A stretch of 64,000 bases of DNA from Porphyra umbilicalis. Its lineage: Eukaryota; Rhodophyta; Bangiophyceae; Bangiales; Bangiaceae. A model generated the notes under the pieces. That model did no database searches, was not told the origin of the DNA, and saw nothing but the letters and a program-made list of their open reading frames with translations. A program made the position numbers and the translations under genes. Shown one piece after another: positions 23,888-63,074 of this stretch (its first letter is position 1; every line of letters starts with the position of its first letter). The stretch lies in assembly GCA_002049455.2 (NCBI GenBank), contig KV918788.1, forward strand, positions 186,001 to 250,000, read 5' to 3'.

Positions 23888-25690
23888 ATGCGCCTCTTCG
23901 TGCTCTTTCCCTCTCCCCTGCTCCCCCCCCCCCCCCCCCACGCTGGCTCCCCACCCGCGGGGCACGCCTCCTCCCCCCACACCCGGTGATGCATCTGGCA
24001 ACGCCACCCCCCCGCCGCTGTCGCCACCGGTGGCCCCCCCCTCCCCAGTCACGACGGGGTGCACCATTGGCCCCCCGTACGCGGGCATCCGCGTCGGCGC
24101 CATTGACGCGGCAACGCCCGCGGCGCTGGCGGCCATCCTCACCACCCTCCGCGCCGTGTGCGACGTGCGGCTGCTCGAGTCGGGCGTCGGCGAGCCGCGG
24201 CCGGGCGGCTTGACGACCTACCTGCTGACGGCGGCGCAGATTGACGCCCTGTGGTCTGACCTCGGCGTGCGCGTGCGGGTGTACGTGCCGGACCTCGGCG
24301 CCACGCTCGCCGCCGCGGAGAGTGTGGTGGACGATGGGGTGGCGGAGCAACCGCCCTCGCGTCCCGTGCCCGCGCCATTGACGGGGGGGGGGGCGGGCGG
24401 GGGGCTCCCGCCGGGCATGCTCGGCTTGGCCACGTCCCCGCGGGCCAACACCTCAACGGCGGCCGACGGGTTGGCGGCGGCGGCAGCGTCGACGCCGGCG
24501 CCCGTCTTGAGCGCGGCGGCCGCCACCGAGTTTTACACGGCCTACCGGTCGCTGACGGCCGTCAACCGGCGGATGGATTTGTTGGCGGCCGACTACCCGG
24601 GGGTGGCAGCGACCATCCCGATTGGCAAATCCGTCCTCGGGCGGCAGCTGACCGCGTTGGCGGTCGGCCACACGCCCGCCGACGCGCCGGTGCGGTTGGT
24701 GGTGCTCGGCTTGCAGCACGCGCGGGAGTGGGTGGCGGGCCTCGTGCCGCTCTACACTGGCGAAATGCTGGTGCGGGGCGCCGCCGAGCACCCGGACTTG
24801 GCCGCCTTTCTCACCCGCGTGCAGCTGCTGTTTGTGCCCATGGTCAACCCCGACGGCTTTGTGTACACGGTCACGACCGACCGGATGTGGCGCAAGAACC
24901 GATCCGACGATGGCAGCACCTGCCCGGGCGTCGACCTCAACCGCAACTGGGGGGTGGACTGGGGCGGCCCGCACGCCACGTCGACCGTCGAGCCGTGTCG
25001 GGAGACGTACACGGGCGCGGCGCCCTTTTCCGAGCCGGAAACCACCGCCATCCGCGACCTCATCGACGCCCACCCGGGCATCGTTGGCTTTATCGACTTT
25101 CACGCGTACGGGGAGTTGGTGCTCGGCGCGTGGGCGCACGCGGAGGAGCCCCCCGCGGACCGCCCCAACGACAAGGCGTACGGCATGGCCGTCACGGACG
25201 GCGTCAACCGGGTGCACGCGTCGGGCTACCGCTACGGCACGGGCGGTGAGTTTATCTACTTGGCGAGTGGGGTGGCGTCGGACTGGGCGACGGCCGCCAA
25301 CATGAGCGCCGTGACCATTGAGTTGCGGCCCAACAATGCGCCGGGCGCGGGGCTGTCGCTCGGCACGGAGTTTCTGCTGCCCGCCTCAGAGGTGCTGCCG
25401 ACGTGCGAGGAGGGCATGGGGGGGGTCATTGGCGCCGCGCGGTTTTTGGAGCGCGCCGCCCGGGGGGGGGACGACGACCTCGAGCCCGTCGACTGGGTGC
25501 CGCTGCGGGGGGGGTGACGGACGAGGGCACGCCGGGGGGGGGCGGTGACGACGGGGGGGGGGGGGACGCCGACGACAATGAAGCCGGCCTCGCCGTGGGA
25601 ACCATCGTTGGCATCTCGGTGGGGGCGGGGCTTGCCGCCCTGGCCATCCTGGTGCTGGCAGTGTGGATGGTGCGGAACCGGACGCACTAA
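23888..25690 (+). CDS. M14A zinc carboxypeptidase, membrane-anchored, copy 1
   Basis: Secretory-pathway exopeptidase removing C-terminal residues. The main frame (about 23940-25517) encodes an M14 propeptide (GIRVGAIDAATPAALAAIL onward) and a complete catalytic domain: Zn ligands in LGLQHAREW (His, Glu) and FHAYGEL (His), substrate Arg in MWRKNRS, DLNRNWGVDWGG (Asn-Arg pair), the Tyr in FIYLASG, and catalytic Glu in AVTIELRPN. In bovine numbering residue 255 is Ser, not Asp, so B-type (Lys/Arg) specificity is unlikely. After G runs at 25507-25565 another frame supplies a C-terminal membrane helix (GTIVGISVGAGLAALAILVL) and tail MVRNRTH, stopping at 25690. The start is unsettled. I place it at ATG 23888, before a C17 tract. 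An Ala/Val-rich signal-like stretch (23764-23850, another frame) may be the true N-terminus. The frame breaks coincide with homopolymers. Confidence 0.88.
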
Positions 25691-26630
25691 CTGGGAGGGG
25701 GGGGGGGGGGGGGGTGGGGGGTGGGGAGCCGAGGGGGTTGGGAAGGAAGGGTAGGGAGACGAACTCGCCATAGGCGCCGACACAACACAAAGAGCAACAA
25801 AAAGTTCCTTCTGCACCGTGGGGAAAACCGCCGACGTCGCACACACACGCTGTCTGGGAGAGAGGGCGCGGAGGGACGGCGGGAAGGCAACACGACACTG
25901 CAAGTTTGCACGACGACGGGCGCGGACCAAAGGAGCGACACGTCTCCTCCGAGGACCACCGCTTCCCGCACTGGTACTTCCGTTGCGCTCGAGCAACGGC
26001 AGCAGCGGTGCCCGATCAGCGCCGTACGTATCGGCGGCCGAGCAGGTGGCCGCCCCCGCTTGCACCATTGGCCGTCAATGGCGAGCCGCGGCGCTTCCTC
26101 AGACGGGTGTCAGCGAGACGCGCCGGCCGCCGTCGGCGGCCGCCGACCAACGCCACGTGCCAGATGCCGGTGTCTAGAGGCGGGAGGGCGGGCTCGCTTG
26201 TTGGGCCTTTGGTCGTTCAATCATTCTCGCAGCACGACCGCCGAAGACCATGGGAACGCAAGAGCCTCCCGCTTGTTCGCGACGTTTCTCGCCGTCGGGG
26301 CAGTGACGTTGGGTTGCGCAACGTGTTGACCACTGGAGAGGGCCTCCCCGTATGGCGTGCGACTCAAAGGACGGGGTGTCATGTAGTCAAGCGATGGATG
26401 CGCACAGTTGGTACACGTGTATTGGAAAAAAGATATCTGGACGGCTGACGCGAGTACGTAGCAAGCACAGGCTCGACGTCCAAACATCAATAATAGAAGA
26501 AAAATCTCACAGCCACAGGACTGAACTCCAGTCTGGCAAAGTCACACAAACGGCTGCCCGCATCCACGGCAGATGTCCATCCACGCATCAGACGTAGGAT
26601 ATCGCAGTCCGACATCACATCCCATCCACC
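25691..26630. other. 3' flank of carboxypeptidase copy 1
   Basis: Shared with unit 2 (44023-44582 plus 45363-45736). It begins with a long G run and holds no recognisable gene. The site at 26250-26251 (AT before GGGAACGCAAG) is the empty site for the element at 44583 in unit 2. Confidence 0.5.
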
Positions 26631-26899
26631 ATCGTCTCCTTAGACAATCAGGGCCATCGGCGGTCATCGGGGCTCATCATGGGCCATCGGCCGATTCCAA
26701 AAAACCGGTATAATGACGTCGTCGATGCGGCCAACCGATGAAGTCGAACCATCGGCGAAGGGCTCCCACGATGACCTGCCATCTTCGAATTGTGTGTATA
26801 TAAATCTAGAAGTCCAACTCACAACGAGAAGGAGACAAAAACTTCATTTTCAGAATGAAGAACACGAGATCCAGGATGGACAGGGCACGAGCGCCACGC

Positions 26900-27720
26900 C
26901 ACGCCCCGGCCGCCCCGGCCGCTGCGCCGCGCCACCGCACCATCCGCGCCGCTGCGCCCCCACCGCCACGGCACGCCTGCCGCCGCCGCGCCGCGCCGCG
27001 CCCGCGCCGCCCCCGCCGCGCCGCCGCGCGCCGGCCCCCGCCGAGGCGGCGCGCCCCCGCCGCCGCCGCCCCGCCGCGCCCCCGCCCCGGCCGTGGCGCC
27101 GCGCCCCCGCCCCCGCCGCGCCGCCGCGCGCCGGCCCCCGTCGTGGCGGCGCGCCCCCGCCGCCGCCGCCCCGCCGCGCCCCCGCCCCGGCCGTGGCGCC
27201 GCGCCCCCGCCCCCGCCGTGCCGCCATGCGCCGGCCCCGGCCGTGGCGGCGCGCCCCCGCCCCGGCTGCGCCGCTGCTCCCCCACCGCCGCGGCGCCCTC
27301 GCCGCCGCCGCCCCGCCGCGCCCCCGCCCCGGCCGTGGCGCCGCGCCCCCGCCCCCGCCGTGCCGCCATGCGCCGGCCCCGGCCGTGGCGGCGCGCCCCC
27401 GCCCCGGCTGCGCCGCTGCTCCCCCACCGCCGCGGCGCCCTCGCCGCCGCCGCCCCGCCGCGCCCCCGCCCCGGCCGTGGCGCCGCGCCCCCGCCCCGGC
27501 CGTGGCGCCGCGCCCCCGCTCCCGCCGTGCCGCCACGCGCCGGCCCCGGCCGTGGCGGCGGGCCCCCGCCCCGGCCGCGCCCCCGCGCCTCGGTCCCCGT
27601 CACGCCACCATGCCCCCGCGGCCGCCTCGCCGCCGTGCCCCCGACCCGGCCGCGCCGTCGCGCCTCCGCGGCCGCCGCGTAGCCTCACTCTCGCCCCGGC
27701 CGTGCTACCGCGCCTGCTAG
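26900..27720. repeat. GC-rich minisatellite, ~142-bp higher-order unit
   Basis: CCCCGCCGCGCCCCC recurs at 27169, 27311 and 27453 (period 142), with shorter related units before and after. The array opens Arg/Pro/Ala frames on both strands, which I do not call as genes. It lies just inside the left end of the 11.7-kb element. Confidence 0.85.
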
Positions 27721-28286
27721 CCCACCGCGTCGCCTCGGTCCCCCCGCGGTGCCCGCCGCGCGCTCTGAGGCGCCGGGGTGACGCTGCACCCTGGCACCCC
27801 CGCTCCCCACGCGGTAGCGCCGGTGCGCGCGGGACCCGCTCCACCGTCACATTGGAGTCGCGGCACCCTGGCGCACCGCCGTGCGCCCGCGTGCCCATGC
27901 CTTCGCGCGCCAGCGCCCTGGCGCGCCAAACCCCGCACGACGCAGCACGCCCGCGTCGCGGTGCCACAGCACCCCCATACCCCAGTCTCGTCAGAGCCCC
28001 TGTGTCCACTTGCCCCTCCGTCCACGTGCCGCAGGCCGCCTGCCGATCCACTCCCCACGACGCAGTACACCCACGCCTGGTATCCCACTGCTTCTTGCGT
28101 CGTATGCCACCCTACAAAAATGCCGGATGTCCACTACCACCGGCACTGCGCTCAGCTCTACTCTATGACTCCCGCCGGACGCGCAACCCCCTCTCCAACT
28201 CACACCCGCGCGCCCACAATCAACACAGGACCTCGCTGGATGCACAAGAGGCACATATCACGCATGAGCATCTTGCAGGGAGTCAC

Positions 28287-30929
28287 CTACACCACCAGCA
28301 CAGGCGCCACGACAGGCGCCCCGGCCGGGTTGTTGGCATCTTCGTCAGGTACCGGCATGTACTCGTCGGGAAACTTGGCGCGGTCGGGGTCGGAGCCGTC
28401 GACAATGTCGAGGCCGTTGTGCACCGTGCTGTCTTTCGGAAGGTACTTGTCCAGGCTGACCATCTCGGCCACGTACCGCTTGAACCGGTCTCCGTCCGGA
28501 CCACCAACCTTAACACCCGTCACGACCGCCTCCAGGGCCTCAGCGACAAAGGTGCAAACGAGGCCGTAGTGGCCTGCCGTCTCATGCACAACAACAACCT
28601 GGCCAGACTCTGTCGGCTCCTTGATGCGTTGGCGGGCATTAAGGTGGATGAACATCTGCTTTGACGCCGCAATGATGCCAACCCGCCCGCCGTCCGACTG
28701 GCCGTAGCGGCGGTTCAACTTCCACTGCGCGGCCGTGGTGATAGACATGGTGCTCGTAGAAGAGCCGACGGCGTCGAACCACGCCGCAACGACCACCGCC
28801 TTGATCGCCCACATCGCGTGCGAAAACACCATACCCAGTGGCGCGCCCGCCCGCACAGTCTTGGGCTTAGCGCCGCCACGGACGCGCTTCTTGGTCGGCT
28901 GGTCGATCATCTCGAGCAAGAAGACGTTGGCCTCGTCGGCGCTGACGCCCATGTACTCCATGGCGCTTGCAACGATCATCTCAAACTTCGTCTCTGGGTC
29001 CAGGTAGACGTGGCGCGAGACCGTGGCCAGGGCAATCATCTTGGTCACCCGCGGGTTGAGGAGGTCGCGGATGCACTGCATGATGACTGAGCCCTCTGCC
29101 TGTCGCGTAGCTTGAGCCTCAATGCGCGCCACCGCGTCACAGACGCGAGGAGCAGGGCGACGGAGCCGGGAGCGCGGTGCCGGAGTTGATGCGCGTAGCT
29201 CACTGGCCCAAGAATTGAGCTGTGCCGGCTGCACAGGGGGGACGTCGTCGAGCGGCGGTACGCCGTTGGTGGCCCGAGGCGGCAGCGGCGAAAGCATTGC
29301 AGTGGTCGGCGGCCGCGCCGCACCGTCCGTCGGAAGGGGCAGCGGAGGCACCTCATCGTCGGCAGGCGCCGGTGGTGGAGGTGACTGAGCACGTCCCGAA
29401 GAAATCGACACCGCTTGCGAAGGCGGCAATGTCGTCGTTGTGGCCGCGAACCTTACACGCTTCGGCTTGGGAGCCGGCGGCTCCTCGTCATCCTCCTCGT
29501 CGACGTCGCTCCCGGGGGATCGGACCGGCGCTGGCTTGCAAGCGGTGCGGAGCTGTCGCTTGAGCTCAGCAAAGCCAGCCGCGAGCACCTCAATCGAGTG
29601 GCCGTGGGTGCCTAGCTGCTCCGTGTTCAGGCTCACCGACGCGATCAGGTTCATCAGGGTATCCTTGAGCCTTAGAAGCTCCGACACCTCGCGCTTGAGC
29701 TTCGCTACGTCCGCCTCCAATCCTGTAATCTCATCCGCCGACCTCCCGCCGATATCCTTGTTTCCACGTACGGTCTTGCTCCCGACGACGACCTTGGCGC
29801 CACCACCCGCCGCTCTTTCTCCACGAGTCGCCTTGGCCGCTTTGACCTGCATCGCCGCCTTCGTGGCCGCCGTGGTCCTGGCACTGCCTGGAACCTTGGC
29901 GGCGGCCACGAAGGCGGTCTCATTTGCCGAGGCCGACGCATTGTCGGCGGCCATCCGCATGGGAGCGGCCGCCGAAGCCGCGGCGGCGGGCGTCGTGTTA
30001 ACGGCGCACGCGGAGCGTGCACCGTCGGGGGAGCGTGAGCTCAAAGCAATCAGGCCAGCAGTCGCGGCTGCCTCACATCCGCGAGCCGATCCGCCGGCCG
30101 TGGACGATCCACCCACCGTCGAAGAACAAGCAGCCGCGGACGATACGCCCGCCGAGGACCCGGCCGCCGTAGAGGTCCCGCGCTCCGCCGAGGGCGCAGC
30201 AGCGCCGGCCAAAGAAGCAAGGGACGGAACACCCTTTGCGCGACGGCGCGCGGCGGCAGCGCTCCAGCGCTTGGCAGCTGCCGCGCGAGCGCGCTCAGGT
30301 GTAAAGGTCTGGGTGCCGCTCCCCGGATTGATGACGGGGCGCTTCGAGCCGGCCCGAGCAGACAGCGCACGGGCCGGCTTCATTGGCACGCTAGCCTCGG
30401 CCTGTAGACCTCCTGCGCGGCTGGAAGCACAACCATGCACGTCCGCCTCGGTCGAGGCGATGGCAGCCGCGGAATGAAGAGGAACGGCCGGTGGAGTGGC
30501 ACCAACGGCAGGAATCTGCAACAGCTGCGCGTGGCCTCCAGACGCCGCCAATGGAGACGCGGCGGCCGGCGTCGACCCACGCAACATCTGCGTGGCCGAC
30601 TGCGTCAGGAAAGAAGGGAACGGCAGAGTGCTGGGCTCCGGCGAGGGCGGCCGGTCAGCCTCCAGCTGCGCCTGCGCGTGCCCGCGCGCAACAGCAGCGT
30701 GGTGATACATGCTGTCGTGGGCCATGTAGTCTGGGAAGCTCTGCTCTTGCGTGTTGACCGCCCAATGCGTCTCAAAACGCGCGCCAGACCCGTCGCTGGC
30801 ATCGGCGCCACGGGCCGCACCGAGGGCGACAGACGCAGCAGCAATCACCTCCCGCATGTCCTCCTTGTTGTCCTTGTCGGCAGTCGACGGCATTGGCGTC
30901 CGAGCGTCCGAGCCTCCGCGGCCGGCCAT
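28287..30929 (-). CDS. transposon-encoded accessory protein, 880 aa, unknown function
   Basis: Divergent partner of the transposase in the 11.7-kb element. The ATG at 30929 begins MAGRGGSDARTPMPSTADKD and a single uninterrupted frame runs to TAG at 28287. Residues 1-200 are Ala/Ser/Pro-rich. About 200-226 is a basic motif (FTPERARAAAAKRWSAAAA) that could contact DNA. About 230-390 is Ala/Ser/Thr low complexity. About 398-460 is a likely coiled coil (GLEADVAKLKREVSELLRL). An acidic-proline linker follows (DVDEEDDEEPPAPKPKRVRF), then a folded C-terminal domain from about 606 with LNPRVTKMIALATVSRHVY and AMWAIKAVVVAAWFDAVG. I recognise no catalytic domain. Unbroken coding over 2.6 kb with ordinary composition shows it is a real gene. 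Its place beside a DDE transposase suggests a role in DNA binding or complex assembly, which is inference. Confidence 0.85.
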   Translation of the reverse strand: MAGRGGSDARTPMPSTADKDNKEDMREVIAAASVALGAARGADASDGSGARFETHWAVNTQEQSFPDYMAHDSMYHHAAVARGHAQAQLEADRPPSPEPSTLPFPSFLTQSATQMLRGSTPAAASPLAASGGHAQLLQIPAVGATPPAVPLHSAAAIASTEADVHGCASSRAGGLQAEASVPMKPARALSARAGSKRPVINPGSGTQTFTPERARAAAAKRWSAAAARRRAKGVPSLASLAGAAAPSAERGTSTAAGSSAGVSSAAACSSTVGGSSTAGGSARGCEAAATAGLIALSSRSPDGARSACAVNTTPAAAASAAAPMRMAADNASASANETAFVAAAKVPGSARTTAATKAAMQVKAAKATRGERAAGGGAKVVVGSKTVRGNKDIGGRSADEITGLEADVAKLKREVSELLRLKDTLMNLIASVSLNTEQLGTHGHSIEVLAAGFAELKRQLRTACKPAPVRSPGSDVDEEDDEEPPAPKPKRVRFAATTTTLPPSQAVSISSGRAQSPPPPAPADDEVPPLPLPTDGAARPPTTAMLSPLPPRATNGVPPLDDVPPVQPAQLNSWASELRASTPAPRSRLRRPAPRVCDAVARIEAQATRQAEGSVIMQCIRDLLNPRVTKMIALATVSRHVYLDPETKFEMIVASAMEYMGVSADEANVFLLEMIDQPTKKRVRGGAKPKTVRAGAPLGMVFSHAMWAIKAVVVAAWFDAVGSSTSTMSITTAAQWKLNRRYGQSDGGRVGIIAASKQMFIHLNARQRIKEPTESGQVVVVHETAGHYGLVCTFVAEALEAVVTGVKVGGPDGDRFKRYVAEMVSLDKYLPKDSTVHNGLDIVDGSDPDRAKFPDEYMPVPDEDANNPAGAPVVAPVLVV

Positions 30930-32744
30930 AGTGGTGGTGTTGGTGGAAAAGCTCGAGAGAGGGGGGAGGGAGAGATGGGGGAAGGAGGTACGTCGGGCTC
31001 GATGTCGGTAGCGCTCTGGGTGGGGATTGCTTCGACTGGTGCGCGGTGGGGAGGTGTTGCACTCGAAGCGAACGCGCAGCGCTGTGGCCGCGCTCAAGTA
31101 CCCGAGGGTGCGCACACAGAAGGGTGGGTCGCATACATCAACACAGTAGCCACAGGCAGCCAGGGCACGGAGCAGCTCGTGTGCAGGGCGTCAGGACGAA
31201 GGGACTTGGTGCACGAAGTCAACTCAACGGGGCAGGATCCTCACCAGACACCTCTCGCACGCCACCCTGCTGTCCACTCTCGGGCAGCCTCCCACTCCGC
31301 CCGCAATTCACCGAGGAAACCGATACGCACGTCGCCTCACGACGCCCTGCCCCAGTAACGGGCGCCAACAGATCGATCCACTGCGCGGATGCCAGTAACC
31401 ACGCAGAGCGTAGGCTATCGGTGTGACGTACTCTCTTCGCAGCGCATCGGATCCTGGCAGAAAGAAAAGGCTCACAGTGTGGTCGAGACCGCCTGGTGGG
31501 CAGCTGTGTACCTGTGCACGGGTACGCCGGACAGCACGACAGTGGGTGTCACGCAGCACCACTCACCGGCACTCACCGGCGTGACCGAGTGGTTGCGTCG
31601 GTCTGCCGGTACGAGCTGACCGCCAGTCGTAAGGTGAGAAAACAGACGGGGGCACCACGCTAGGCGCCATCGACGCTGCTCGTCTGATTGGGCTGTCCGG
31701 GGTCGGACACGCCCAGGCAGCACGAGGGTGAACAGGAAACGGCCGGGTGACGCAGAGGGACAAGGCTCGCGCGTCGAGCAAAGACGGCGACGACGCAGAC
31801 GCCGCCGCTTGTCCAGTTACCGGGGTGAACTGATCGAGTGCCAAAGCTGCCCTCGTCGATCAAGTTTCGCTGGCCCCCGTAAGAACACTGGCTGTACGCG
31901 GTGGAAGCTCCAGTGTATTCAATTTTTTTAATTTAAAGAGTTAATATTGTGTTATTCGATCGTTCACCGGCTGCGCGTGTGAAGAAGAAAACCCCGCCTG
32001 GACTGCAACTGCTACAGCCACCTCCGTGTCTTCCGACGCGTCCCGCTCCTGTGCCGACTCACCACACCTGTGCTGCCTGCTTACCGCCTCGCCCTCGTGG
32101 CATCGGCCTCGAGCCGTGCCTCCCTTTCCATCAAACCTGGCCTTGCATCCGCGGCTGGCAGTGCCGCCCTGCCCTTGTTTCGCGCCACGGCCAGCAAGCG
32201 TTGGGGCCGTTCACTGCATGGATGCGCTGTATGTGTGGACGTGGGGCTTCTAACACCATGACACACTCGCTCAGCGCGCCTCGTTGACAGAGCGCGACAT
32301 GGCCGTGTTTCCGTCACGCCTTTTCCGCCAAGTCTGGTGCGCCTGCGCCGCAGTTTGAGGATTTTAGCCACGCCGTGTCCAACAGCGCAGCACTGTCTGC
32401 AGACTGGGCGACGCGGCGCACGGCTGCATAGGTACGTTGGCGTCTGTTTCCGTTGCTCTTGGTTCTCTGACAAGGGTGCATGAGCTGATGGCAGGTGGAC
32501 GTGATGACCACGGTTGGAGGTGCTGATGAGCGCTACGTGAGGGGTTGGCCAAGGAGAGAGCGTGTCTGGACACGCAGTCAGGTGTGTCGGGGGGGACTGG
32601 TGGGGGGTTTGAACGGTGACGGGCGTCTCAGCCGGCAGGCGATGGGCAATCGTAGAAGTACCCGGACGTCCGGCTCACCACAACAGACTCGCTCTGGCAT
32701 TGTGCTTTGTGCGACATCGGCTGGGACACTCAACTGACTGCACC
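30930..32744. other. divergent intergenic region of the 11.7-kb element
   Basis: Lies between the start codons of the two oppositely directed transposon genes and should hold both promoters. AT-rich patch at about 31918-31960. A short direct repeat CACTCACCGG occurs twice at 31560-31579. No gene of its own seen. Confidence 0.5.
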
Positions 32745-35700
32745 ATGTCAGACGTCCCGCCCACGTCTGCCCATCTACGCTGCTGGATATGCCTTCGTAC
32801 CTTCAATGCTTACCGTAACCTTGTTTGCCACCGCATTCGTAAGCACAGGACCCGTCTGGCTGGGAACGGGGCGACGAGCCCCGTCGCCAGAGCTGGTGTT
32901 GGGGTGGGGAGCAATGGAGCGGCCATGGGTGGTGGGCTGGGTGATGGGAGAGCTGGTGTGGGGGGCGCTGGCGGGGATGCCGCCGGGGGAGGACTTCTGG
33001 CTGGCAATTCTGTAGGCGTGCCCAACGCCTGTGCCGGGGAAGGAGCCTCTGAGGGCGGTGGAGATGGGGGTGGTGGTGAGGGCAGTGAGGCCGACGCGGG
33101 TGACCTCCATGATGTCGGCGCAGGTAATGGCGTGGGACCTGCCCACGACGGCGGGGCGGCCCCAACCTCTGGCCGCATCAACGTGACCTTCAAGCAGACT
33201 GTCATTGAGGACGCAATGGCGTCAATGGACGCGATGGTGCAGCTGACCAGGCAGCCGGTGGTGCCACCGTCGCGAGGCAAGCGCAAGGTCGGCAGCGTCA
33301 ACGGCAGACGCACCGATGACAACGACGCCCCCACGCCGCAGCAGTACAAGTACACCACCGTGACGACCGAGGTGCGCTCTTTTTACGAGGAGAAACAAGA
33401 CTGGAGGCGTGCCGAGCCGCTCCTGAAGCGGAGAAAGACGTGCAAACCGGGGCGGTTCAACTCTGTGCGCCTGCGGGCGCTGCAATCGTATGCGCTGACA
33501 GGGCGACCTGGCGGGTTTTCGTTGTCGGAGCAGGAGCGATTGTTCGACTTGCTCGACACATGGGACCGGACCAGGCCAGGCATGGCGGTGGACGATGGGC
33601 ATGATCAGACCGTGCGTGACGCCTTTAAGACGGTGAACGGCTTCAAGGACGCGCTGCGCGACGACATCGACGCCGCCGTGTTACAGGAGGGGTGGTCAAA
33701 GTGCAGCTTGGAGGAAGGTGGTGTTGTCTACGAGGCATACTTTCGGTCCGTGCTTGAGGTGGCGCTCAAGATGCTGCAAGACTGCAAGGACGTCAAGCTT
33801 TGGAGCGGAGGTGACAGACCGGCGCCGCCGACCAACAACCGCGAGTCTCCCCTGGACGGGGATGCCTTTCGGCTATGTGAAATGACGGTCATGGATGAGC
33901 ATGGGCCGGACAGCTTCGTGCTGGCCTTCCACGTCTTCAGTGACGCAAGCCAGCTAGCGTGGTCCGGTGGTAAGTCTACCTACTTTTGAGGGGCAATCAG
34001 AGAGGTCTGGTGGCGTGCGGTTTGCATTGGATGACGATGACAACCTGGAGACGGGCGTGCATTGTATCCTCTTCGTCGCCTCTGTTGTAGCCTGTCGCTT
34101 GCAGCTTGCTGACTCCTCTGTCTCTTCTTATTCGTTGTGCTTTTCTTGCTTTTGGGCCTTGTCCGTCTGTCTACCAGCTCACCAACTGTACCCGCTTCGC
34201 GTGCGTGTCCTCAACGTGGACACCAGCGATGCAGTTTGGGTGACAGTTGCGTACATCCCGATCGTGCGCAAGATGAAGGAGCCGGGTGCCACCAACCGGG
34301 CTCGTAAGAGGCGGTGCGGCTTGCTGCAGCGCGTGCTGTTCCTGGTTTTCCGCTCTGCTGTTTCCGCCAGCAACACGGGCGCCGAGGTCCAATGGGGCAA
34401 GCGTAAGCTCAAGCTCTTCGCACGCATTCTCCTGTACATTTGTGACTTGCCTGAGGAGAAGGCGGTCCTATGCCTCAAGGGCGGCAAGTGCGCGTTCCCG
34501 TGCTCTATGTGCGACGTTCCCGTGCACCACACCGGCTCGGTGGAGGCGCTGATCTCCAAGAGCCGAAACGCCCTTGTCCTCGTGCGTCGTCAGCTGGAGG
34601 CCGCTGGGCACCGAAGGTGGCAGCGGGACGCCCAGAGGCGCCTACACCTGGAGGCCAGCAGCAGCGCGCACAGCGAGGTGCCAATGTTGGCTGCCATGGG
34701 CGGCCTGACGTCGCCGCCATTCTTGATGTACAAGATGGTGGGATTTGATGCGCTCCACGTACGTGTCCTGGTCTACTTAAAGCCGTGGAGAGCTGTTCTT
34801 TATTGGACGACGAACTTGCACGCGGTGTGGTGGCGTCTGACACAGGGGCGCCCATTTTTCTGACGTCATTGCTCTCATTCTCAGTCCCTTTACTTTGTTG
34901 TGCATCCCGTGGCCTTCTTCGATCACCAGGTTTTGGACTTGGGTGTCACCCGGATGTTGGCCCATCGTCTAGTCCGCGTGTACCCCTACATGTGCTTGGT
35001 CAGGCTGCCCAAGTGTGGGACCTGCAAGGGGGCTTCCCGCGTGGCGAACCGTCACTTTGACTTCATGGGCCGTCGCAGCCAGGCGAGTACGGCTCCCCCT
35101 GGGTATGTTGTACACTTATCCACATACGTTTGATAGCGAGCAGAGTCCCATTCTTGGTGAGCGTCCTCATCGGCCACAGCCCGTTCTCTATCTGACGTGC
35201 CTGAATGCATCCTTGCGCGGCTCTCGTGCTCGCGGCTCACGGCTTTTGTGTTTTTGCTGGTCATTGACGCAGGTATCTCGTGGCGCTTGATGAGAAGCAG
35301 GCGACCTTCACGGCCTCCCAGCAGCGCAAGGGCGTGTACATTGTCCCTCACGCCGTTGCGGGTGTTTTTGGGCTTGGTGACGAGCGACCGGTGCCCCTGA
35401 ACCCGTCGGCGCTGCAGAAGGGACGGGCCGGTGGACGGCGTGGCGCTGGAGGCGGCAGCGGTGGTGCTAGCGCTACGACGGAAGCAGAGAATGCGACAGC
35501 AGACAGCCTCTTTGACGCTGGCGAGGGCGAAGACGATTTGCCGAACGGTTTCATGTTTGACTGGGACCTGTATCACAAGACGTTTGGTGACCTGCCCCTC
35601 GAGGACGCCGTTACGGCGATGTTTGCAGAGTACGCAACCCTCTACGCCCGCATCGCCGGGTGGGCGACCTCGTCGGTGGCCGTGCCCATGACGTTGGAAG

Positions 35701-36638
35701 TGGCTGAGGTACTGGCCAACGACGCGGCCGAGTTTGTTCTCGGCTTCGTCAAGCCTCTGCTTGGGGAGGTGCACACGTCGAAAGTGCACAAGCTCTTGCG
35801 GCACCTTCTAGATGCTATCCGCATGCACGGCAACCTGCGCAACGGCAACACCAGCTCCAACGAGGCCGGCCACAAGGTCGACAAGGTCTTCTACAACCGC
35901 ACGAACAAGGTCATGAAGACCTTCACGCAGCAGATTGTGAGGCAGTCGCAGGGCTCCCAGGCCATCGTGGCCCGCAATGCCAAGCTCGACGAGGCGGCAA
36001 CACGCTCAGGACCCCGTGTGCGCAGCGAGCCCGCGCGCCCCTTCCGCGGGGTGCCACGATTGTCGGTGGGCACGTTGTCGCTCCGACCTGGGCTCAAGAA
36101 CCTCGGCGCCCTTTTGGGTCAGCCCGAACACGCCAAGATGATAGTTGTGGGCCAGGTGGAGCTCGCGGCGCGTCTGGAGTGCGGCGCCCCTTTGAAGCAG
36201 ACGCTACGTGGCTCGCCCAGCTTCCGCACCGGGCAGGCCTGGTTCGACGCTGTGCAGTACGAGGTCTCTGCGACGGGCACCGACGCCCAATCTCGGGGTC
36301 AAGTGGAGCTCCAATATGGGGAGACGCGCGCCATACTCCGTTACAAGGAAGATGACGTTGTCGTTCTTTGCAAGCTCAAGGCCGTGACTCCCGCGCACAA
36401 GTGCCCTCTGGCCGAGCGTTTATGCACGCGGGTTGCATGGGCTTTTGACGAGCGCGGCGAGTGGGAGCTGGTTGCGGTGCCGCTATCGCGCGTGCGCCGT
36501 GTCGTGCACGTCGTCCCGGACTTTTCTGATTTGATGACGCGCCGCGGTGTGATGGCGACGCCGCCGTCCTATGTTTCGCCGCTAGACGACCTACGGGAGA
36601 TGCGGTATATGGTGAATGACTTTTATCCCTGGAAATAG
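32745..36638 (+). CDS. Plavaka/KDZ-like DDE transposase with N-terminal C2H2 zinc finger, four exons
   Basis: Would cut and join the ends of the 11.7-kb element. Exons: 32745-33969, 34178-34758, 34930-35102, 35273-36638. The introns of 208, 171 and 170 bp start GTAAGT, GTACGT and GTATGT and end in AG. The joined length is exactly 1115 codons (1114 aa), which supports the model. A C2H2 finger uses Cys13, Cys16, His29 and His34 (C-x2-C-x12-H-x4-H). Candidate catalytic acids are Asp400 in HVFSDASQLAWSG, Asp605 in FDALHVLDLGVTRML (formed only after splicing, with Asp599 nearby), and Glu857 in NEAGHKVDKVFYNRTNK. CSMCDVP between them resembles the Cys-rich knuckle of Plavaka-type transposases. The C-terminus ends VNDFYPWK and has a relative at 61019-61213. 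Family placement is by motif recognition only; assignment to another CACTA/KDZ branch is possible. Confidence 0.8.
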
Positions 36639-37320
36639 TGAGGGTTACGAGTGTTTTCTCCTCTGTGTGCCGACGTAAAGCCGACTCCGTCCTCGTCAGC
36701 TGGCGGCCGAAGGGTTGACAGCTACAGTGTCACGTGCGCCTTGAAGCGAGGTGGCCAGGGCGGCGGTGCCGCCCGCGTTACCCTCCTCTGCCGTCGACAC
36801 TCCCCACTCGATCAGTTGTCAGCCACGGCGGATGCAGAGGCGGGGGCGGCGGCGGCAGCAGCCGCAACCACACATTGACAGCGACGCTACTGCTTCTTGG
36901 AAGGGACGGCCGCGGCGATGGAGGGTGGCGGCGGAGGTTGCAGAGGCGACGGCTCCCGCCACGCGCCCTTGCCGACAATCCCCCTCCCCGCAGTCGCCAA
37001 GGGCGGCCGCCGCCGTGGCGGCGGCGCCAGCGCCCGCCAAGCCGACCCGCGAGCACTGCCCGTGACCCTAGTCGGCTGGCGCCGCGGTGAGTAGGTCACA
37101 GTGGTGGCGGCCGCGGCTCCTGCCGCGCCCCCCCCCAACGGCACCGTGGAAATGGTCAACGGCGACCGACGTGTCGGAGGCGGTGATGATTTCAGCGGCG
37201 AACGGCGGGGACCGGAGCGGCAGAGACGAGCGCGATGGGGACTACACCAGCGGCCACGTGGACGCCCAGGACGAGGCCCACAGCCACGGCGGCGGCGGAA
37301 ACGGGGCCAGCCGCCACGAC

Positions 37321-37900
37321 GCTGGCCGGAACGATGGGGGCGAGAAGCGGGGCCTCAGACACGGCGGCGACGGCCACGCGGGTGTCGAGGACGGGGGCCC
37401 CGGCCACGGCGGCGGCGGTCACGCGGGCGGCGGGGAGGGGGGCCGCGGCCACGTCGGCGGCCGGCGCGATGGGAGCGGGGACGGGGGCCGCGGCCACGGC
37501 GGCGGCGGCCACGAGGGCGGCGGGGAGGGGAGCCGCGGCCACGTCGGCGGCCGGCACGATGGGGGCGGGGACGGGGGCCGCGGCAACGGCGGCGGCGGCC
37601 ACGAGGGCGGCGGGGAGGGGAGCCGCGGCCACGTCGGCGGCCGGCACGATGGGGGCGGGGACGGGGGCCGCGGCCACGGCGGCGGCGGCCACGAGGGCGG
37701 CAGGGAGGGGAGCCGCGGCCACGTCGGCGGCCGGCACGATGGGAGCGGGGATGGGGGCCGCGGCCACGGCGGCGGCGGCCACGAGGGCGGCGGGGAGGGG
37801 AGCCGCGGCCACGTCGGCGGCCGGCACGATGGAAGCGGGGACGGGGGCCGCGGCCACGGCAGCGGTGGTCACGCGGGCGGCGGGGAGGGGGGACGGGGCC
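37321..37900. repeat. 90-bp minisatellite, about 6 copies
   Basis: GGCGGCGGNCACGNGGGCGG recurs at 37411, 37501, 37591, 37681, 37771 and (variant) 37861, an exact 90-bp period. As 90 is a multiple of three, every frame on both strands becomes a 30-residue repeat: Gly/His-rich on plus, Ala/Val/Pro-rich on minus. It lies inside the right end of the 11.7-kb element, mirroring the array at 26900. Confidence 0.9.
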
Positions 37901-38346
37901 AAGGGGGCGGCGCGGACGAGGTCCGTGGCACGGGGGCGGCGGCTACGGAGGCGGCGGACGCGGGTGCGGGGGGCTCAGAGGTGGTGGTGGGCACGCGGGC
38001 GGTGGTGGCCGCGCCAGGCAAGCGAGTCGCTCGTGTCGCTCGCAGTTGCGTCGGTTCTTGGTGGCCACGCCGCTGGCTGCCGCCACTGCGATCGAGACCA
38101 GGCTCAAGAGCGGGGTCCAGGCCTCAAGAGTTGGATCAGGTATGCTCTGATCATCCATATCGAGGCATTATCGACGAGATCCCTGAAGTTTTCTTTCCGA
38201 GCAACGTTTTCTCTCCGGAATGCTCCGCCTGGATTGCCGATGAGCACTCATCTCAAGATGGGCCAAGATGACCCCTCATCTGTACTCCATCATCCCATCG
38301 GCGATGGCACGATGACCACCGATGGAACTGATTGTCTAAGGAGACG

Positions 38347-39665
38347 ATTGCCGGCCGAGCTGGCCGCGAGGTGGCAGCTTCCACAACCAGCTCCATCGCT
38401 GACACCGCGTGCCGGACGTGGCGCCCGCACGAGGGGCATGACGCCCAAAGTGACACGCCCCGGTCCGGACGCGACTAGTCGCGACTACTATTCGAGGCCT
38501 CGAAGCGAGTCGTCTCACTTCGAGGTGACAAGCTCGCGCAGCGTTGCGGCCCCAGGCGTGGCCGACCGGCAGAGCGGCTCGTCCTTCCAGTCATGGAGGA
38601 AACACTCGAGCGAGGCCCTGGCCCAGTTGATCAGTGGGGTGCTCATTCGACAGGAGCGCGCGGACGCGCCCCAAAGAGGGGCAGCTGGCGTCGTCGTCAC
38701 TTCAGTCTTGGCAACCTGTTCTTTGCGCCTGGCGGAAGGGTGAGTCACGAGCAAATCAGCCAGTTGCCAGAAAGTCCCTTTTCCTCCCTCCCAGCTGTCG
38801 CTGTCACTCCTCCTCCCAGAAGCTCGGCAGCTGGTGATGGACGAAGAAGGATCAGGGTGCCCAGCGCCGTGTTACTATACCTCATACGTAGCCGCGACGC
38901 AGATGAAAGCCACCAGGGCAGTACAGTACGCTCCCGTTGTAAGAGACACTCTGATTCAGCCCAACATGAATTGTAGTCGCCTGCGCGGGGTGGAAGGAGA
39001 GTCTCGTGACCCATTTTCTCTTAATAACGACCCTCTTGGAACGGGAACGCACTGTAAGTATAAAACCGGTCTGAAACGTGTGGGGCATTCTAATGTTGCA
39101 GGACCCACAGAAGTTTGCAAACCCAACCAGGAGAAGGCGCCGGCGCGTACTGCAAACCCACATCTGTGCGTGGAGATCTTCCACATCCACTTCGGGCAGT
39201 CGCTTGATACAGTTCGTAGCCGCGCCTCGCGAGAAGACGGTAATGGACGACCATAGTACCGAAAGGATGCGCAAGAGCGCCTCACGAAGCGTAGAGACCA
39301 ATGCTTCCACGGCGTTGCGCCGGGAATCTCGTAGACCTTCTGCATGCTATCTGCCAAGTCGATCTACACATGAAAAGCCAAACACCAACGCACTCCATCA
39401 GCTGGGCTCTTTTCACTCTCAAGAGGTTTTTCAAGCCATCATAACTCGTTTCCACCAGGGAACAACCCGAAAGCCTTCGTGTGTGACTCGCAAGAACTTG
39501 CGACTGCCAACATTCCTTGGTCAGCAAATCGGGGTCCAGATGGCCTGAAGTGTCGCCTCGGTATTGAGACTGCAGGGCAGTCTGCTTGTCTGCGCCGCCG
39601 CTGTCGTCGGACCAGCGCTAGCTGAGCAGCCTGCCGTTGTGGTGAGTTGGCTGGACGCGCACCAG
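38347..39665. other. duplicated segment, right part of unit 1, no gene recognised
   Basis: Nearly identical to 45737-47066. Several frames of 120-155 codons overlap on both strands and are conserved only because the DNA is. Those at 38837-39256 (plus) and 38882-39310 (minus) have protein-like mixes, but I recognise nothing in them. They might be remnants of a mobile-element gene. Confidence 0.45.
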
Positions 39666-40615: not shown

Positions 40616-41758
40616 TGAGTGCCGGCGGACCGGTCCAGCGGGGCCCGATCAGTGGTCCACTGTCCCGATTTGTTTGGGTGGCGCGTTTGGGATGCGAAAC
40701 GTAGGCCGCGTAGGGCACCCGTCGGTCGCCACGCAGCGTCACACTGCCTGGCCGTTGGGCTACGCGGCAGGGCGCTTGTCTTGTCCTTAGCCGGTCCACG
40801 CCAGCCTGCGCCCGGCGGGGCCAAGCACGAGTGTCGCGCGGGAGCCGATCTGGGTCGCCGCGGCCGTCGCCGCTGCGCAGACGTCTCCGACCATTCGTCA
40901 GCTCCCCGCGACCCCGCGCGCAGCTCCTGATCGGCTACCCTTGCAGAGGCACACCCGATCTGGGCCAAGACCGCGCCTTGACACGGGCAGGACCGTCCTG
41001 CCCTGGTGACCAGGGTCGCGCGGGCCACCCCCCTGAAAAAGGCGTTTTGCGGGTGCCCCCCTCTCGACAATCAAAAAACGACACTGTCGCGCGGGGGCTG
41101 TGGCGATCCCGTTGTTGCACACACCCGCATCATCCGCAGCAGGAGGCCGTCTGGCAGCGCCACGTACTCGCAGGAAGACGGGCGTTGCGGCGTCTCGGCG
41201 AGATGGCGCCAGGGGGCCCGCCACCCAGGGCCTGCCAAATCTCGTCCCTCGTCCGGCCCAACCGCCACCGTCCGCCGTGACGGCGGACACCAGACACCAG
41301 CCGCGGTGGCACGCGCCCAGGCCGGCGGCTGCTGGTGGCCGAAGGCGGATTCGCACGCGGCCCACCGCCGCGTGCCGGGGTTGAGGGCCCCGCGCGCCTG
41401 CCGGTGGAGGGGCGGACCCTCCGCGCTGCCCAAACTGCCCCGGTGGCGGCAACCCCCTTGTTTTTTTGACCTCGCGTCGTGGTCGAGCGCGCGCTCGCAC
41501 TGCCAGCGGCGATAAGAGGCAGCGAGGTCCCGCTGCGGGGCGCAACCGCAGCGGCAGCAACGTACCCGCGCCACTCCTCCGCAGCGTCAACGTCCGCCGG
41601 GCTTGCCCGCCGCTCGCCCCGCTCTCCGTCCCGCAGGACGTTGCCGATCTGCGTCGCCGGTCCCTCCTCCGCGCACGCACCGACGTTACAAGCCAAACGG
41701 TCGTTGCGTCTTGTGCGGCACTGTTTGTCCCCCCCCCCCCTGCTCCGCTCCCCCATCA
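40616..41758. repeat. ~1.14-kb repeated block, copy 1
   Basis: Almost identical to 61930-63074, and the last part of the tandem unit. Frames of 160-260 codons are open on both strands (for example minus 41071-41574 starting MARVRCCRCGCAPQRD) but none shows a known domain. Because the copies are nearly identical at DNA level, shared frames are not evidence of coding. Confidence 0.85.
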
Positions 41759-42221
41759 TGGCGGGGCGGGTCCCCCCCCCCCCCCCCCCCCCCACCACCA
41801 GCCCGGGTGCCGGCCGCCGCCCCTGCCTTTTTCCGTCGCCGCCCGCCGCCCCGTGGGCACCAGTCCGCCCGTGTAGGCGTCGTGTGTGCGCACCGCCGCG
41901 GCGCCATGGCGTGTGCCCGACCGCCGCCGTGGCCGCGTGGGTGTCTGTGTCGCCGTGGGGGGGGCGGGTGCCCCCCGTCGTTGCCCGCCCCGACGGGGCG
42001 GCCGAGTGGGCGGTGGCGGCCTCGGCGGAGTGCTGCCGCTGCGGCGAGTGCTGCGGAGGGGGGGTGGCCGAGCCGCCGGCGGCGACCACGGGGCGGTGGC
42101 GCGCTGCTCGTCGCCACCGCGGCCGCTGCCGTTGCTGCCGTGGCGGCGGCGGCGGTGGCGGCGGTGGCCACCGCCGCGACGGTGCCGTCGGTTCTCCCCG
42201 CGTCGGTGGCGGGCGTGCGCC

Positions 42222-44022: not shown

Positions 44023-44582
44023 CTGGGAGGGGGGGGGGTGGGGGGTGGGGGGTGGGGAGCCGAGGGGGTTGGGAAGGAAGGGTAGGGAGACGAACTCGCC
44101 ATAGGCGCCGACACAACACAAAGAGCAACAAAAAGTTCCTTCTGCACCGTGAGGAAAACCGCCGACGTCGCACACACACGCTGTCTGGGAGAGAGGGCGC
44201 GGAGGAACGGCGGGAAGGCAACACGACACTGCAAGTTTGCACGACGACGGGCGCGGACCAAAGGAGCGACACGTCTCCTCCGAGGACCACCGCTTCCCGC
44301 ACTGGTACTTCCGTTGCGCTCGAGCAACGGCAGCAGCGGTGCCCGATCAGCGCCGTACGTATCGGCGGCCGAGCAGGTGGCCGCCCCCGCTTGCACCATT
44401 GGCCGTCAATGGCGAGCCGCGGCGCTTCCTCAGACGGGTGTCAGCGAGACGCGCCGGCCGCCGTCGGCGGCCGCCGACCAACGCCACGTGCCAGATGCCG
44501 GCGCTTACAGGCGGGAGGGCGGGCTCGCCTGTTGGGCCTTTGGTCGTTCAATCATTCTCGCAGCACGACCGCCGAAGACCAT
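44023..44582. other. 3' flank of carboxypeptidase copy 2
   Basis: Matches 25691-26251 of unit 1. No gene seen. Confidence 0.5.
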
Positions 44583-45362
44583 CGTCTACTTCGGACTTTT
44601 TCTCCATCGAAGCCTCATCGAGGCTTCGATGCGCCATCGACCCATCGAAATATGGGTCGATGACGGTCATCGAGACTCTCATCGAGCCCATCGAACCGAT
44701 GTGACTTCAGTTTGAGAGCCCGAGCAGGGACCCATCTGATTGGACAACTGGATAATCTTGTGTATGCATCTCAGGGACACTGTCCGTTCAGTATGCCATT
44801 TATATGTATTTGGCACGCCAGAGATCTCAGAGACATCCGTTCCGCCGACGTCGAGACCATCTTCTTCACGAGGACGGGTGCCGCCAATGCATTTGACTTA
44901 GTCTAGGAAAGCATAAAAACCCGCGATGTCGCCGCACGCGGAGCACCGCGAAGCACAACCCGGAGGACTGCGAGCGTCCAAAAAATCCATCGTTTGTGCA
45001 GTCAAGATGTCGAAAGACCGCCTCTCATGCGAAGTGGCCGAAGCCTCATGCATGTGCATATCACGCACGCAGCTTCGCCAAGCTTTGCCCGGACCTCGAC
45101 AAAGCCATGTTGACCTTGCCCGTGTCGAAGGTCCCGATATGATGAGATGTCAGGCAATACCTGCACGCAGATTTATGTAATTCTTGTAAATGTGTCGGCA
45201 CGGATTCTCAGTCTCATCGGCCAAAAACACCACTCTTTTCGAAACGGTTCTCATCGAAGGTCTCATCTATGTCCATCGAAACCCCCTTCCGATGACCAGA
45301 TCCTGTCGGGTCGCGATGTCATCGGAAAAGGGCCTTCGATGGGAAAAAGTCCCAAGTAGACG
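44583..45362. mobile_element. 780-bp non-autonomous element with ends like the 11.7-kb transposon
   Basis: The ends CGTCTACTTCGGACTTTTTC and, reverse-complemented, CGTCTACTTGGGACTTTTTC are inverted over about 30 bp and flanked by AT on both sides (44581-44582 and 45363-45364). Unit 1 has the empty site (GACC-AT-GGGAACGC at 26250). Like the 11.7-kb element it starts CGTCT, uses AT, and is full of CATCGA/TCGATG motifs near its ends. It has no transposase frame. It is probably mobilised by the same or a related transposase. Confidence 0.88.
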
Positions 45363-45364
45363 AT

Positions 45365-47115
45365 GGGAACGCAAGAGCCTCCCGCTTGTATCGCGACGTT
45401 TCTCGCCGTCGGGGCAGTGACGTTGGGTTGCGCAACGTGTTGACCACTGGAGAGGGCCTCCCCGTATGGTGTGCGACTCAAAGGACGGGGTGTCATGTAG
45501 TCAAGCGATGGATGCGCACAGTTGGTACACGTGTATTGGAAAAAAGATATCTGGACGGCTGACGCGAGTACGTAGCAAGGACAGGCTCGACGTCCAAACA
45601 TCAATAATAGAAGAAAAAGCTCACAGCCACAGGATTGAACTCCAGTCTGGCAAAGTCACACAAACGGCTGCCCGCATCCACGGCAGACGTCCATCCACGC
45701 ATCAGACGTAGGATATCGCAGTCCGACATCACATCCCATCCACCGTTGCCGGCCGAGCTGGCCGCGAGGTGGCAGCTTCCACAACCAGATCCATCGCTGA
45801 CACCGCGTGCCGGACGTGGCGCCCGCACGAGGGGCATGACGCCCAAAGTGACCCGCCTCGGTCCGGACGCGACTAGTCGCGACTACTATTCGAGGCCTCG
45901 AAGCGAGTCGACTCGCTTCGAGGTGACAAGCTCGCGCAGCGTTGCGGCCCCAGGCGTGGCCGACCGGCAGAGCGGCTCGTCCTTCCAGTCATGGAGGAAG
46001 CACTCGAGCGAGGCCCTGGCCCAGTTGATCAGTGGGGTGCTCATTCGACAGGAGCGCGCGGACGCGCCCCAAAGAGGGGCAGCTGGCGTCGTCGTCACTT
46101 CAGTCTTGGCAACCTGTTCTTTGCGCCTGGCGGAAGGGTGAGTCACGAGCAAATCAGCCAGTTGCCAGAAAGTCCCTTTTCCTCCCTCCCAGCTGTCGCT
46201 GTCACTCCTCCTCCCAGTACCTCGGCAGCTGGTGGTGGACGAAGAAGGATCAGGGTGCCCAGCGCCGTGTTACTATACCTCATACGTAGCCGCGACGCAG
46301 ATGAAAGCCACCAGGGCAGTACAGTACGCTCCCGTTGTAAGAGACACTCTGATTCAGCCCAACATGAATTGTAGTCGCCTGCGCGGGGTGGAAGGAGAGT
46401 CTCGTGACCCATTTTCTCTCAATGACGACCCTCTTGGAACGGGAACGCACTGTAAGTATAAAACCGGTCTGAAACGTGTGGGGCATTCTAATGTTGCAGG
46501 ACCCACAGAAGTTTGCAAACCCAACCAGGAGAAGGCGCCGGCGCGTACTGCTAACCCACATCTGTGCGTGGAGATCTTCCACATCCACTTCGGGCAGTCG
46601 CTTGATACAGTTCGTAGCCGCGCCTCGCGAGAAGACGGTAATGGACGACCATAGTACCGAAAGGATGCGCAAGAGCGCCTCACGAAGCGTAGAGACCAAT
46701 GCTTCCACGGCGTTGCGCCGGGAATCTCGTAGACCTTCTGCATGCTATCTGCCAAGTCGATCTACACATGAAAAGCCAAACACCAAAGCACTCCATCAGC
46801 GGGCTCTTTTTACTCTCAAGAGGTTTTTCAAGCCATCATAACTTGTTCCCACCAGGGAACAACCCGAAAGCCTTCGTGTGTGACTCGCAAGAACTTGCGA
46901 CTGCCAACATTCCTTGGTCAGCAAATCGGGGTCCAGATGGCCTGAAGTGTCGCCACGGTATTGAGACTGCAGGGCAGTCTGCTTGTCTGCGCCGCCGCTG
47001 TCGTCGGACCAGCGCGAGCTGAGCAGCCTGCCGTTGTGGTGAGTTGGCTGGACGCGCACCAGTCGTTCAAGCAGACTCGGTCCGCTGCACCAGCGTTTTT
47101 TCTGTCGGCCGCCGT
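45365..47115. other. duplicated segment, right part of unit 2, no gene recognised
   Basis: Continuous counterpart of 26252-26630 plus 38349-40597 of unit 1 minus its insertions. It carries the empty sites for both unit-1 elements. No gene recognised. Confidence 0.5.
45896..45923. repeat. perfect 28-bp palindrome (disrupted in the other copy)
   Basis: CCTCGAAGCGAGTC followed by its reverse complement. In unit 1 the same site (about 38503-38530) has two substitutions that break the symmetry. Confidence 0.85.
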
Positions 47116-61929: not shown

Positions 61930-63074
61930 TGAGTGCCGGCGGACCGGTCCAGCGGGGCCCGATCAGTGGTCCACTGTCCCGATTTGTTTTGGTGGCTCGT
62001 TTGGGATGCGAAACGTAGGCCGCGTAGGGCACCCGTCGGTCGCCACGCAGCGTCACACTGCCTGGCCGTTGGGCTACGCGGCAGGGCGCTTGTCTTGTCC
62101 TTAGCCGGTCCACGCCAGCCCGCGCCCGGCGGGGCCAAGCACGAGTGTCGCGCGGGAGCCGATCTGGGCCGCCGCGGCCGTCGCCGCTGCGCAGACGTCT
62201 CCGCCCATTCGTCAGCTCCCCGCGACCCCACGCGTAGCTCCTGATCGGATACCCTTGCAGAGGCACACCCGATCTGGGCCAAGACCGCGCCTTGACACGG
62301 GCAGGACCGACCTGCCCTGGTGACCAGGGTCGCGCGGGCCACCCCCCTCAAAAAGGCGTTTTGCGGGTGCCCCCCTCTCGACAATCAAAAAACGACACTG
62401 TCGCGCGGGGGCTGTGGCGATCCCGTTGTTGCACACACCCGCATCATCCGCAGCAGGAGGCCGTCTGGCAGCGCCACGTACTCGCAGGAAGACGGGCGTT
62501 GCGGCGTCTCGGCGAGATGGCGCCAGGGGGCCCGCCACCCAGGGCCTGCCAAATCTCGTCCCTCGTCCGGCCCAACCGCCACCGTCCGCTGTGACGGCGG
62601 ACACCAGACACCAGCCGCGGTGGCACGCGCCCAGGCCGGCGGCTGCTGGTGGCCGAAGGCGGATTCGCACGCGGCCCACCGCCGCGTGCCGGGGTTGAGG
62701 GCCCCGCGCGCCTGCCGGTGGAGGGGCGGACCCTCCGCGCTGCCCAAACTGCCCCGGTGGCGGCAACCCCCTTGTTTTTTTGACCTCGCGTCGTGGTCGA
62801 GCGCGCGCTCGCACTGCCAGCGGCGATAAGAGGCAGCGAGGTCCCGCTGCGGGGCGCAACCGCAGCGGCAGCAACGTACCCGCGCCACTCCTCCGCAGCG
62901 TCAACGTCCGCCGGGCTTGCCCGCCGCTCGCCCCGCTCTCCTTCCCGCAGGACGTTGCCGATCTGCGTCGCCGGTCCCTCCTCCGCGCACGCACCGACGT
63001 TACAAGCCAAACGGTCGTTGCGTCTTGTGCGGCACTGTTTGTCCCCCCCCCCCCCTGCTCCGCTCCCCCATCAT
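61930..63074. repeat. ~1.14-kb repeated block, copy 2
   Basis: Counterpart of 40616-41758 and the right end of unit 2. The few differences seen are mostly single substitutions and a C-run length change. Upstream, GTAGTGGCAACCGTCAGCTT occurs twice in tandem (61885-61926). Confidence 0.85.

What the first reader, a model, noticed from the sequence alone, without database searches (positions are those of the whole stretch)
26633..38346. An 11.7-kb two-gene DNA transposon with a 2-bp AT target site, proven by an empty site in the same window
Exact inverted ends (CGTCTCCTTAGACAATCAG) flanked by AT enclose a spliced DDE transposase with a C2H2 finger and a divergent 880-aa partner. The paralogous unit has the unoccupied site at 45738. 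KDZ and CACTA-type elements are known for 3-8 bp duplications, so the AT-only duplication, the large size and the two-gene divergent layout look like an undescribed lineage.
Basis: partly seen in the sequence, partly recalled or inferred. Interest (0 to 1): 0.85.

Follow-up and report, generated by a model that had tools for sequence, protein, structure and literature searches.

The report
Red-algal Plavaka transposon targeting AT
This is a complete 11.7-kb cut-and-paste transposon of the Plavaka kind in a red alga, one of a large family there that inserts almost only at the two letters AT and carries a second gene of unknown role; it widens a known family rather than founding a new one.

Summary
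Perfect 19-bp inverted ends flanked by AT enclose an uninterrupted four-exon 1114-aa transposase and a divergent 880-aa ORF. The paralogous unit is empty, though it reads GT there. A 780-bp element in the other unit gives the reciprocal empty site with a clean AT, and three more insertions give 14 further comparisons, all with one AT. 35 of 36 tabulated family ends are preceded by AT. The 2-bp AT duplication is real.

The transposase is Plavaka (PF18759), and published Plavaka elements already make 2-3-bp duplications. The host is not a fungus: it encodes phycobilisome linkers and light-harvesting proteins, so it is a red alga, probably Bangiales. The genome holds at least 123 Plavaka matches; members sampled in both main clades share CGTC..GACG ends and AT targets, and a divergent second gene. 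These ends differ from the two published Plavaka types. Verdict: new variant of a known kind. The partner's role is unproven; a terminus-binding accessory protein is my guess. Large EnSpm elements with accessory genes are reported from red algae, cited second-hand.

The parts
26631..26632 (.). target duplication AT, left
   Evidence: sequence; duplication shown by empty sites of relatives
26633..26651 (+). left terminal inverted repeat, 19 bp
   Evidence: exact match
26855..27700 (.). G+C-rich tandem array of about 25-nt units inside the left end
   Evidence: the repeat finder family D1, (end approximate)
28287..30929 (-). partner ORF, 880 aa, divergent from the transposase; no Pfam match
   Evidence: relatives in C71, C213 and, weakly, C323
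32745..33969 (+). transposase exon 1 (C2H2-like finger, D400)
34178..34758 (+). transposase exon 2 (D498, C517-x2-C520); the Plavaka match PF18759 lies here
34930..35102 (+). transposase exon 3
35273..36638 (+). transposase exon 4 (H832-x4-H837, E857)
37195..38004 (.). G+C-rich tandem array (15/45-nt register) inside the right end
   Evidence: the repeat finder family D2
38328..38346 (-). right terminal inverted repeat, 19 bp
   Evidence: exact match
38347..38348 (.). target duplication AT, right
   Evidence: sequence
45745..45746 (.). unoccupied site in the paralogous unit; reads GT
44583..45362 (.). 780-bp non-coding-size relative with ends CGTCTACTT[C/G]GGACTTTTTC, flanked by AT (44581-44582, 45363-45364)
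26250..26251 (.). empty site of the 780-bp element in the left unit: one AT

Best explanation
A full-length cut-and-paste DNA transposon of the Plavaka type (CMC/CMCT group) in a red alga. Shown: exact ends; uninterrupted transposase and partner ORFs; a 2-bp target duplication that is almost always AT; many relatives in the same genome with the same end type and target; a divergent second gene in the same place in every relative whose partner side was read, except the decayed C172 copy. Inferred from family knowledge: the DDE transposase (D400, D498, E857 with C-x2-C and H-x4-H) cuts at CGTC..GACG ends, joins them across a 2-bp stagger at AT (C is favoured before AT, so the preferred target is roughly CATG), and gap repair duplicates AT. 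Inferred with less certainty: the partner, or the C2H2-like N-terminus of the transposase, binds repeated TCATC-type words near the ends and helps to pair them, as TnpA does in plant En/Spm (recalled). Small elements with this end type, like the 780-bp one, would be moved in trans.
For: Pfam Plavaka E 8.9e-8, above its cut-off. Catalytic and zinc-site residues conserved in the 60 best-scoring loci, window included. Exact TIR. Second full element C71 with the same TIR but for 1 base at each end, AT flanks and divergent partner. Two full elements of a sister subfamily, C57 and C213. Empty sites: 5 insertions, 16 comparisons, each with one copy of the dinucleotide, AT in 15. AT before 35 of 36 tabulated ends against 2.7% AT dinucleotides in the window. 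A clade-II element with CT on both sides (C43). TCATC is 5- to 8-fold denser in the end 400 bp than inside.
Against: The window's own empty site reads GT. C29 has TG, not AT, before its end; in clade II three elements (C99, C133, C505) have AT at one end and AC or GT at the other. The pair C3/C106, close in transposase, ended without a recognisable terminus. C172 has only a right end and no partner in the roughly 7 kb upstream that I fetched. CATCGG is not enriched at the left end of C71. No Repbase sequences were at hand, so no tree with named Plavaka families. The partner's role has no direct evidence; its structure prediction did not finish.
Confidence: 0.87

Rival explanations
1. AT belongs to the element: ends are (A)TCGTC..GACGA(T), and insertion makes no duplication.
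For: AT precedes 35 of 36 ends, as an element-borne sequence would; a self-complementary dinucleotide can be read either way at AT sites.
Against: A whole element-borne AT is excluded by empty sites that hold one AT. Insertion between A and T with element-borne T..A fits those sites too, but not the clade-II element with CT on both sides (C43).
Confidence: 0.04
2. An undescribed superfamily.
For: Ends and target match neither published Plavaka type; two large in-genome clades.
Against: Significant Plavaka match and the CMCT residue arrangement.
Confidence: 0.06
3. The partner is a passenger: a captured gene carried along, with no role in transposition.
For: No known domain; accessory genes of unknown function are common in large algal transposons (PMC12477816); partner diverges faster (43.5%) than most of the transposase (70-84% after the first exon) between the window and C71.
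Against: Same position and orientation in C71, C213 and, weakly, C323 of the other main clade, which suggests retention over a long time.
Confidence: 0.35
4. The empty unit in the window is an excision scar, not a pre-insertion site.
For: It reads GT where the duplication reads AT.
Against: One substitution is unsurprising in flanks that differ by 1-2%; no extra bases remain.
Confidence: 0.1

Closest known systems
PlavakaA (fungal; Kojima 2025, PMC12730594)
   Same: Plavaka-type transposase; 2-bp duplication
   Different: Published ends TGT..ACA; here CGTC..GACG; fungal host
PlavakaB (fungal; Kojima 2025, PMC12730594)
   Same: Plavaka-type transposase; 2-3-bp duplication; some members carry an additional gene (TET/JBP)
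   Different: Published ends CATCA..TGATG; here CGTC..GACG; the partner here has no Pfam match, so no TET/JBP domain was recognised by sequence
ESTA, EnSpm/CACTA and Transib (CMCT group, PMC12730594)
   Same: D, D, C(2)C, H(3-4)H, E arrangement; ESTA has a fixed dinucleotide duplication (TA)
   Different: Transposase here matches Plavaka in Pfam; duplication AT, not TA; ends not CAC..GTG
Giant EnSpm elements of red algae (Petroll et al. 2025, not held; known here only through PMC12477816)
   Same: Host group, group of transposons, large size, additional genes
   Different: Could not be compared; may include the elements described here

Membership tests
Plavaka | Plavaka transposase domain (PF18759) | tested here: met
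   E 8.9e-8, 32.2 bits against a cut-off of 26.3, positions 150-270 of 325
[quoted passage not shown]
   D498, C517-x2-C520, H832-x4-H837, E857; conserved in 59/60, 60/60, 59/60, 56/58, 58/58 and 56/57 loci; definition from PMC12730594
Plavaka | 2- or 3-bp target duplication | tested here: met
   2 bp in 5 insertions with empty sites
PlavakaA | termini TGT..ACA | tested here: not met
   CGTC..GACG
PlavakaB | termini CATCA..TGATG | tested here: not met
   CGTC..GACG; the base before AT is C in only 24 of 36 ends
Plavaka | position in a tree with named Plavaka sequences | not testable with these tools
   No Repbase or supplement sequences available; only an in-genome tree was made
EnSpm/CACTA | termini CAC..GTG with 3-bp duplication (fungal EnSpm, PMC12730594) | tested here: not met
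   ends and duplication as above
KDZ | KDZ transposase; duplications of 7-8 bp (Kyakuja 7, Zisupton 8; PMC12730594) | tested here: not met
   no KDZ match at E up to 1 for the exon and partner translations; 2-bp duplication

The most novel reading that the evidence does not exclude
Red algae carry their own large branch of Plavaka with a third end type (CGTC..GACG) and a near-strict AT (CATG-like) target, in which an ancient divergent second gene with no known family is a standing part of the transposition machinery, comparable in role to TnpA of plant En/Spm but of separate origin.
Probability: 0.35. Interest if true: 0.55.

Novelty: new variant of a known kind. Interest (0 to 1): 0.42.

Why it matters
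It documents a Plavaka lineage outside fungi with ends and duplications shown by empty sites of five insertions, a near-strict dinucleotide target that is unusual for its group in what I read, and a recurring partner gene whose role can be tested. The end motif (AT-CGTC...) offers a handle for annotating related repeats in red-algal genomes.

Tried and rejected
KDZ and strict CACTA membership were considered and rejected (domain, ends, duplication length). A fungal host was my first assumption; it was rejected. An element-borne AT was rejected.

Led nowhere or counted against: C3/C106 homology ends without a recognisable terminus. The C122 flank matches C239 from one side only, with AC at the homologous place: inconclusive. 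The C69 insertion lies at the border of another repeat whose 10 fetched copies all begin CATGTAG there; one-sided, not counted. C172 has only a right end, and no partner in the part fetched. Partner C-terminus against PDB sequences: nothing credible, best E 0.06. PMC5547612 and PubMed 40345196 are not held.

Rows dropped before counts. One search gave 63 hits; 22 were examined: all 14 with up to 2 mismatches and 8 of 49 with 3. Of the 14, 13 show family sequence inside the end and all 13 have AT; C38 and the 8 three-mismatch hits show none, and none of those 9 has AT. One search gave 26 hits; 22 were examined: 20 have AT, C29 has TG, C116 has no family sequence. One search uses 36 ends: 13, plus 21 (C116 dropped), plus 2 of the 780-bp element. 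Conservation covered only 28 of 60 loci because minus-strand matches were skipped; redone on all 60. One search lists 100 of 249 hits and its pattern contains AT, so its count leans towards AT. Empty sites: for C213, 7 copies fetched of more listed; for C57, 5 of 9 listed, sharing only about 15 bp left of the junction.

Full report
Observation. The two ends are exact: 19 of 19 bases at 26633-26651 and 38328-38346, the only two hits in the window with up to 3 mismatches; 0 of 100 shuffles had two. Both are flanked by AT. The 11,714-bp element encodes on + a four-exon transposase of 1114 aa without stops and on - an 880-aa ORF, transcribed away from each other. Two G+C-rich tandem arrays lie near the ends. 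The flanks recur at 98.2-98.9% in 41759-47063, where the site is empty: CCACC-GT-TGCC against CCACC-AT-[element]-AT-TGCC.

What it is. Exon 2 matches Pfam Plavaka (PF18759), E 8.9e-8, above its cut-off. In the 60 loci held (the 30 best to the Pfam model and the 30 best to exon 2, the window included) the residues that fit the published CMCT arrangement (D, D, C(2)C, H(3-4)H, E; PMC12730594, passages) are conserved: D400 57/60, D498 59/60, C517 60/60, C520 59/60, H832 56/58, H837 58/58, E857 56/57. The assignment of the triad is mine. As I recall, the spacings D-C of 19 and H-E of 20 equal those of RAG1; no call shows this.

Host. The genome (83.8 Mb, 665 contigs; 67.5% GC in the window) has 10 light-harvesting matches and 12 phycobilisome-linker matches, four of them on contig C665 of 185,000 bp, probably the plastid. 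In both searches 1 of 14 control genomes rang, Synechococcus. The best solved relatives of one light-harvesting protein include 7y5e, recalled as a red-algal complex, and chains named ACPI/ACPII and CAC. GC of 64-68% is reported for Bangiales and 37-57% for other red algae (PMC7423979, passages). So: a red alga, probably Bangiales; species unknown.

Family. At least 123 Plavaka matches exist in this genome (0 of 14 control genomes rang) and 131 to our exon 2; both are lower bounds. In the in-genome tree of 60 loci (midpoint root, no outgroup) the window element sits with C71 and C172 (support 0.999) inside an 8-member group with C57, C213, C14, C143 and L053 (0.994); the other main group holds most loci of the Pfam search. 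C71:76348-87425 is a second full element: same TIR with 1 mismatch at each end, AT flanks, transposase 56% alike in the first exon and 70-84% in the rest with one in-frame stop, divergent partner 43.5%. C57:199649-209274 and C213:28500-38143 are full elements with a related 21-bp TIR. C323 and C91 of the other group end in CCCGACG-AT; paired ends there lie about 10.4 kb apart, for example C323:60936-71409 and C230:105674-116164.

Target duplication. Five insertions have empty homologous sites: the window element (1 comparison, GT), the 780-bp element at 44583-45362 (1, AT at 26250-26251), C71 (2 of 2 AT; 82% and 77% identity), C213 (7 of 7 fetched repeat copies, one AT each) and C57 (5 of 5 fetched, target ATAT, net gain 2 bp). 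That is 16 comparisons, one copy of the dinucleotide each, AT in 15. Of 36 tabulated ends 35 are preceded by AT, against 2.7% AT dinucleotides in the window; C stands before that in 24 of 36. In clade II, 95 of the 100 listed ends (249 found, 5 by the reversed control pattern) carry AT (biased, because AT is in the pattern). The five exceptions are both ends of C43:173180-175197, which has CT on both sides, and one end each of C99, C133 and C505, where the other end has AT. C43 fits a real 2-bp duplication and not an element-borne AT.

Second gene. The partner has no Pfam match at E up to 10. Relatives lie in the same place, divergent from the transposase, in C71, in C213 (35.5% over partner residues 612-874, E 4e-35, plus a similar start, E 0.006) and, weakly, in C323 of the other main group (E 5e-6 and 4e-6; C213 against C323 E 1e-5; these E-values are for single small comparisons). 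No partner turned up in the stretch fetched upstream of the decayed C172. I infer that the two-gene layout predates the split of the two groups. The genome-wide partner search did not complete, so the share of copies with a partner is unknown. TCATC, both strands, counts 4 and 7 (window) and 7 and 6 (C71) in the two end 400-bp stretches, against 0.84 and 0.86 per 400 bp inside; CATCGG counts 5 and 3 in the window ends (mean of simple shuffles about 0.26) but 0 and 3 in C71. Such clusters would suit a terminus-binding protein; that is inference.

Known and new. Plavaka elements with 2-3-bp duplications and complete ends are published for fungi, some with a TET/JBP gene (PMC12730594: abstract, section 3.2 and passages seen; its Figure S2 and sequences not seen). 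Plavaka elements are named in a green alga (PMC12633428, one passage) and in an ichthyosporean (PMC11244446, passages). Giant EnSpm elements with accessory genes are said to be reported in red algae (PMC12477816, passages, citing Petroll et al. 2025, not held). In the library 11 papers hold the word Plavaka, 4 of them also alga. In the passages I saw there was no mention of CGTC..GACG ends or an AT target; most listed papers were not opened. Hence: new variant of a known kind, moderate interest.

Noticed in passing
window 44583-45362: 780-bp element with ends CGTCTACTT[C/G]GGACTTTTTC and AT on both sides, present in only one of the two duplicated units; the other unit has a single AT at 26250-26251.
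   Followed up: yes
window 50374-51606 (+) and 57716-59827 (-): A Plant_tran/DDE_Tnp_4 transposase ORF and, about 6 kb away facing it, an ORF with a sub-threshold Myb/SANT-like match: possibly a tail-to-tail PIF/Harbinger element. Its ends were not sought.
   Followed up: partly
window 24417-25517 and 42672-43913: The duplicated units each carry a zinc carboxypeptidase (Peptidase_M14) ORF.
   Followed up: no
window 40616-41759 and 61930-63074: A further direct repeat of about 1.14 kb, 98.9% identical, abutting the duplicated unit.
   Followed up: no
L068 and L086-L089, L091-L096 (C69, C142, C138, C190, C6, C500, C104, C368, C245, C95, C129): A repeat whose 10 fetched copies all begin CATGTAGTATCTGGGG with unrelated sequence before it; in C69 a member of the window family abuts exactly this border.
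   Followed up: partly
L099 (C57, right flank of the C57 element): About 14 bp outside the C57 element lies another end of the same kind, CGTCGCTTTCGGGGATG next to AT, absent from the five empty copies: a neighbouring insertion of a further subfamily.
   Followed up: partly
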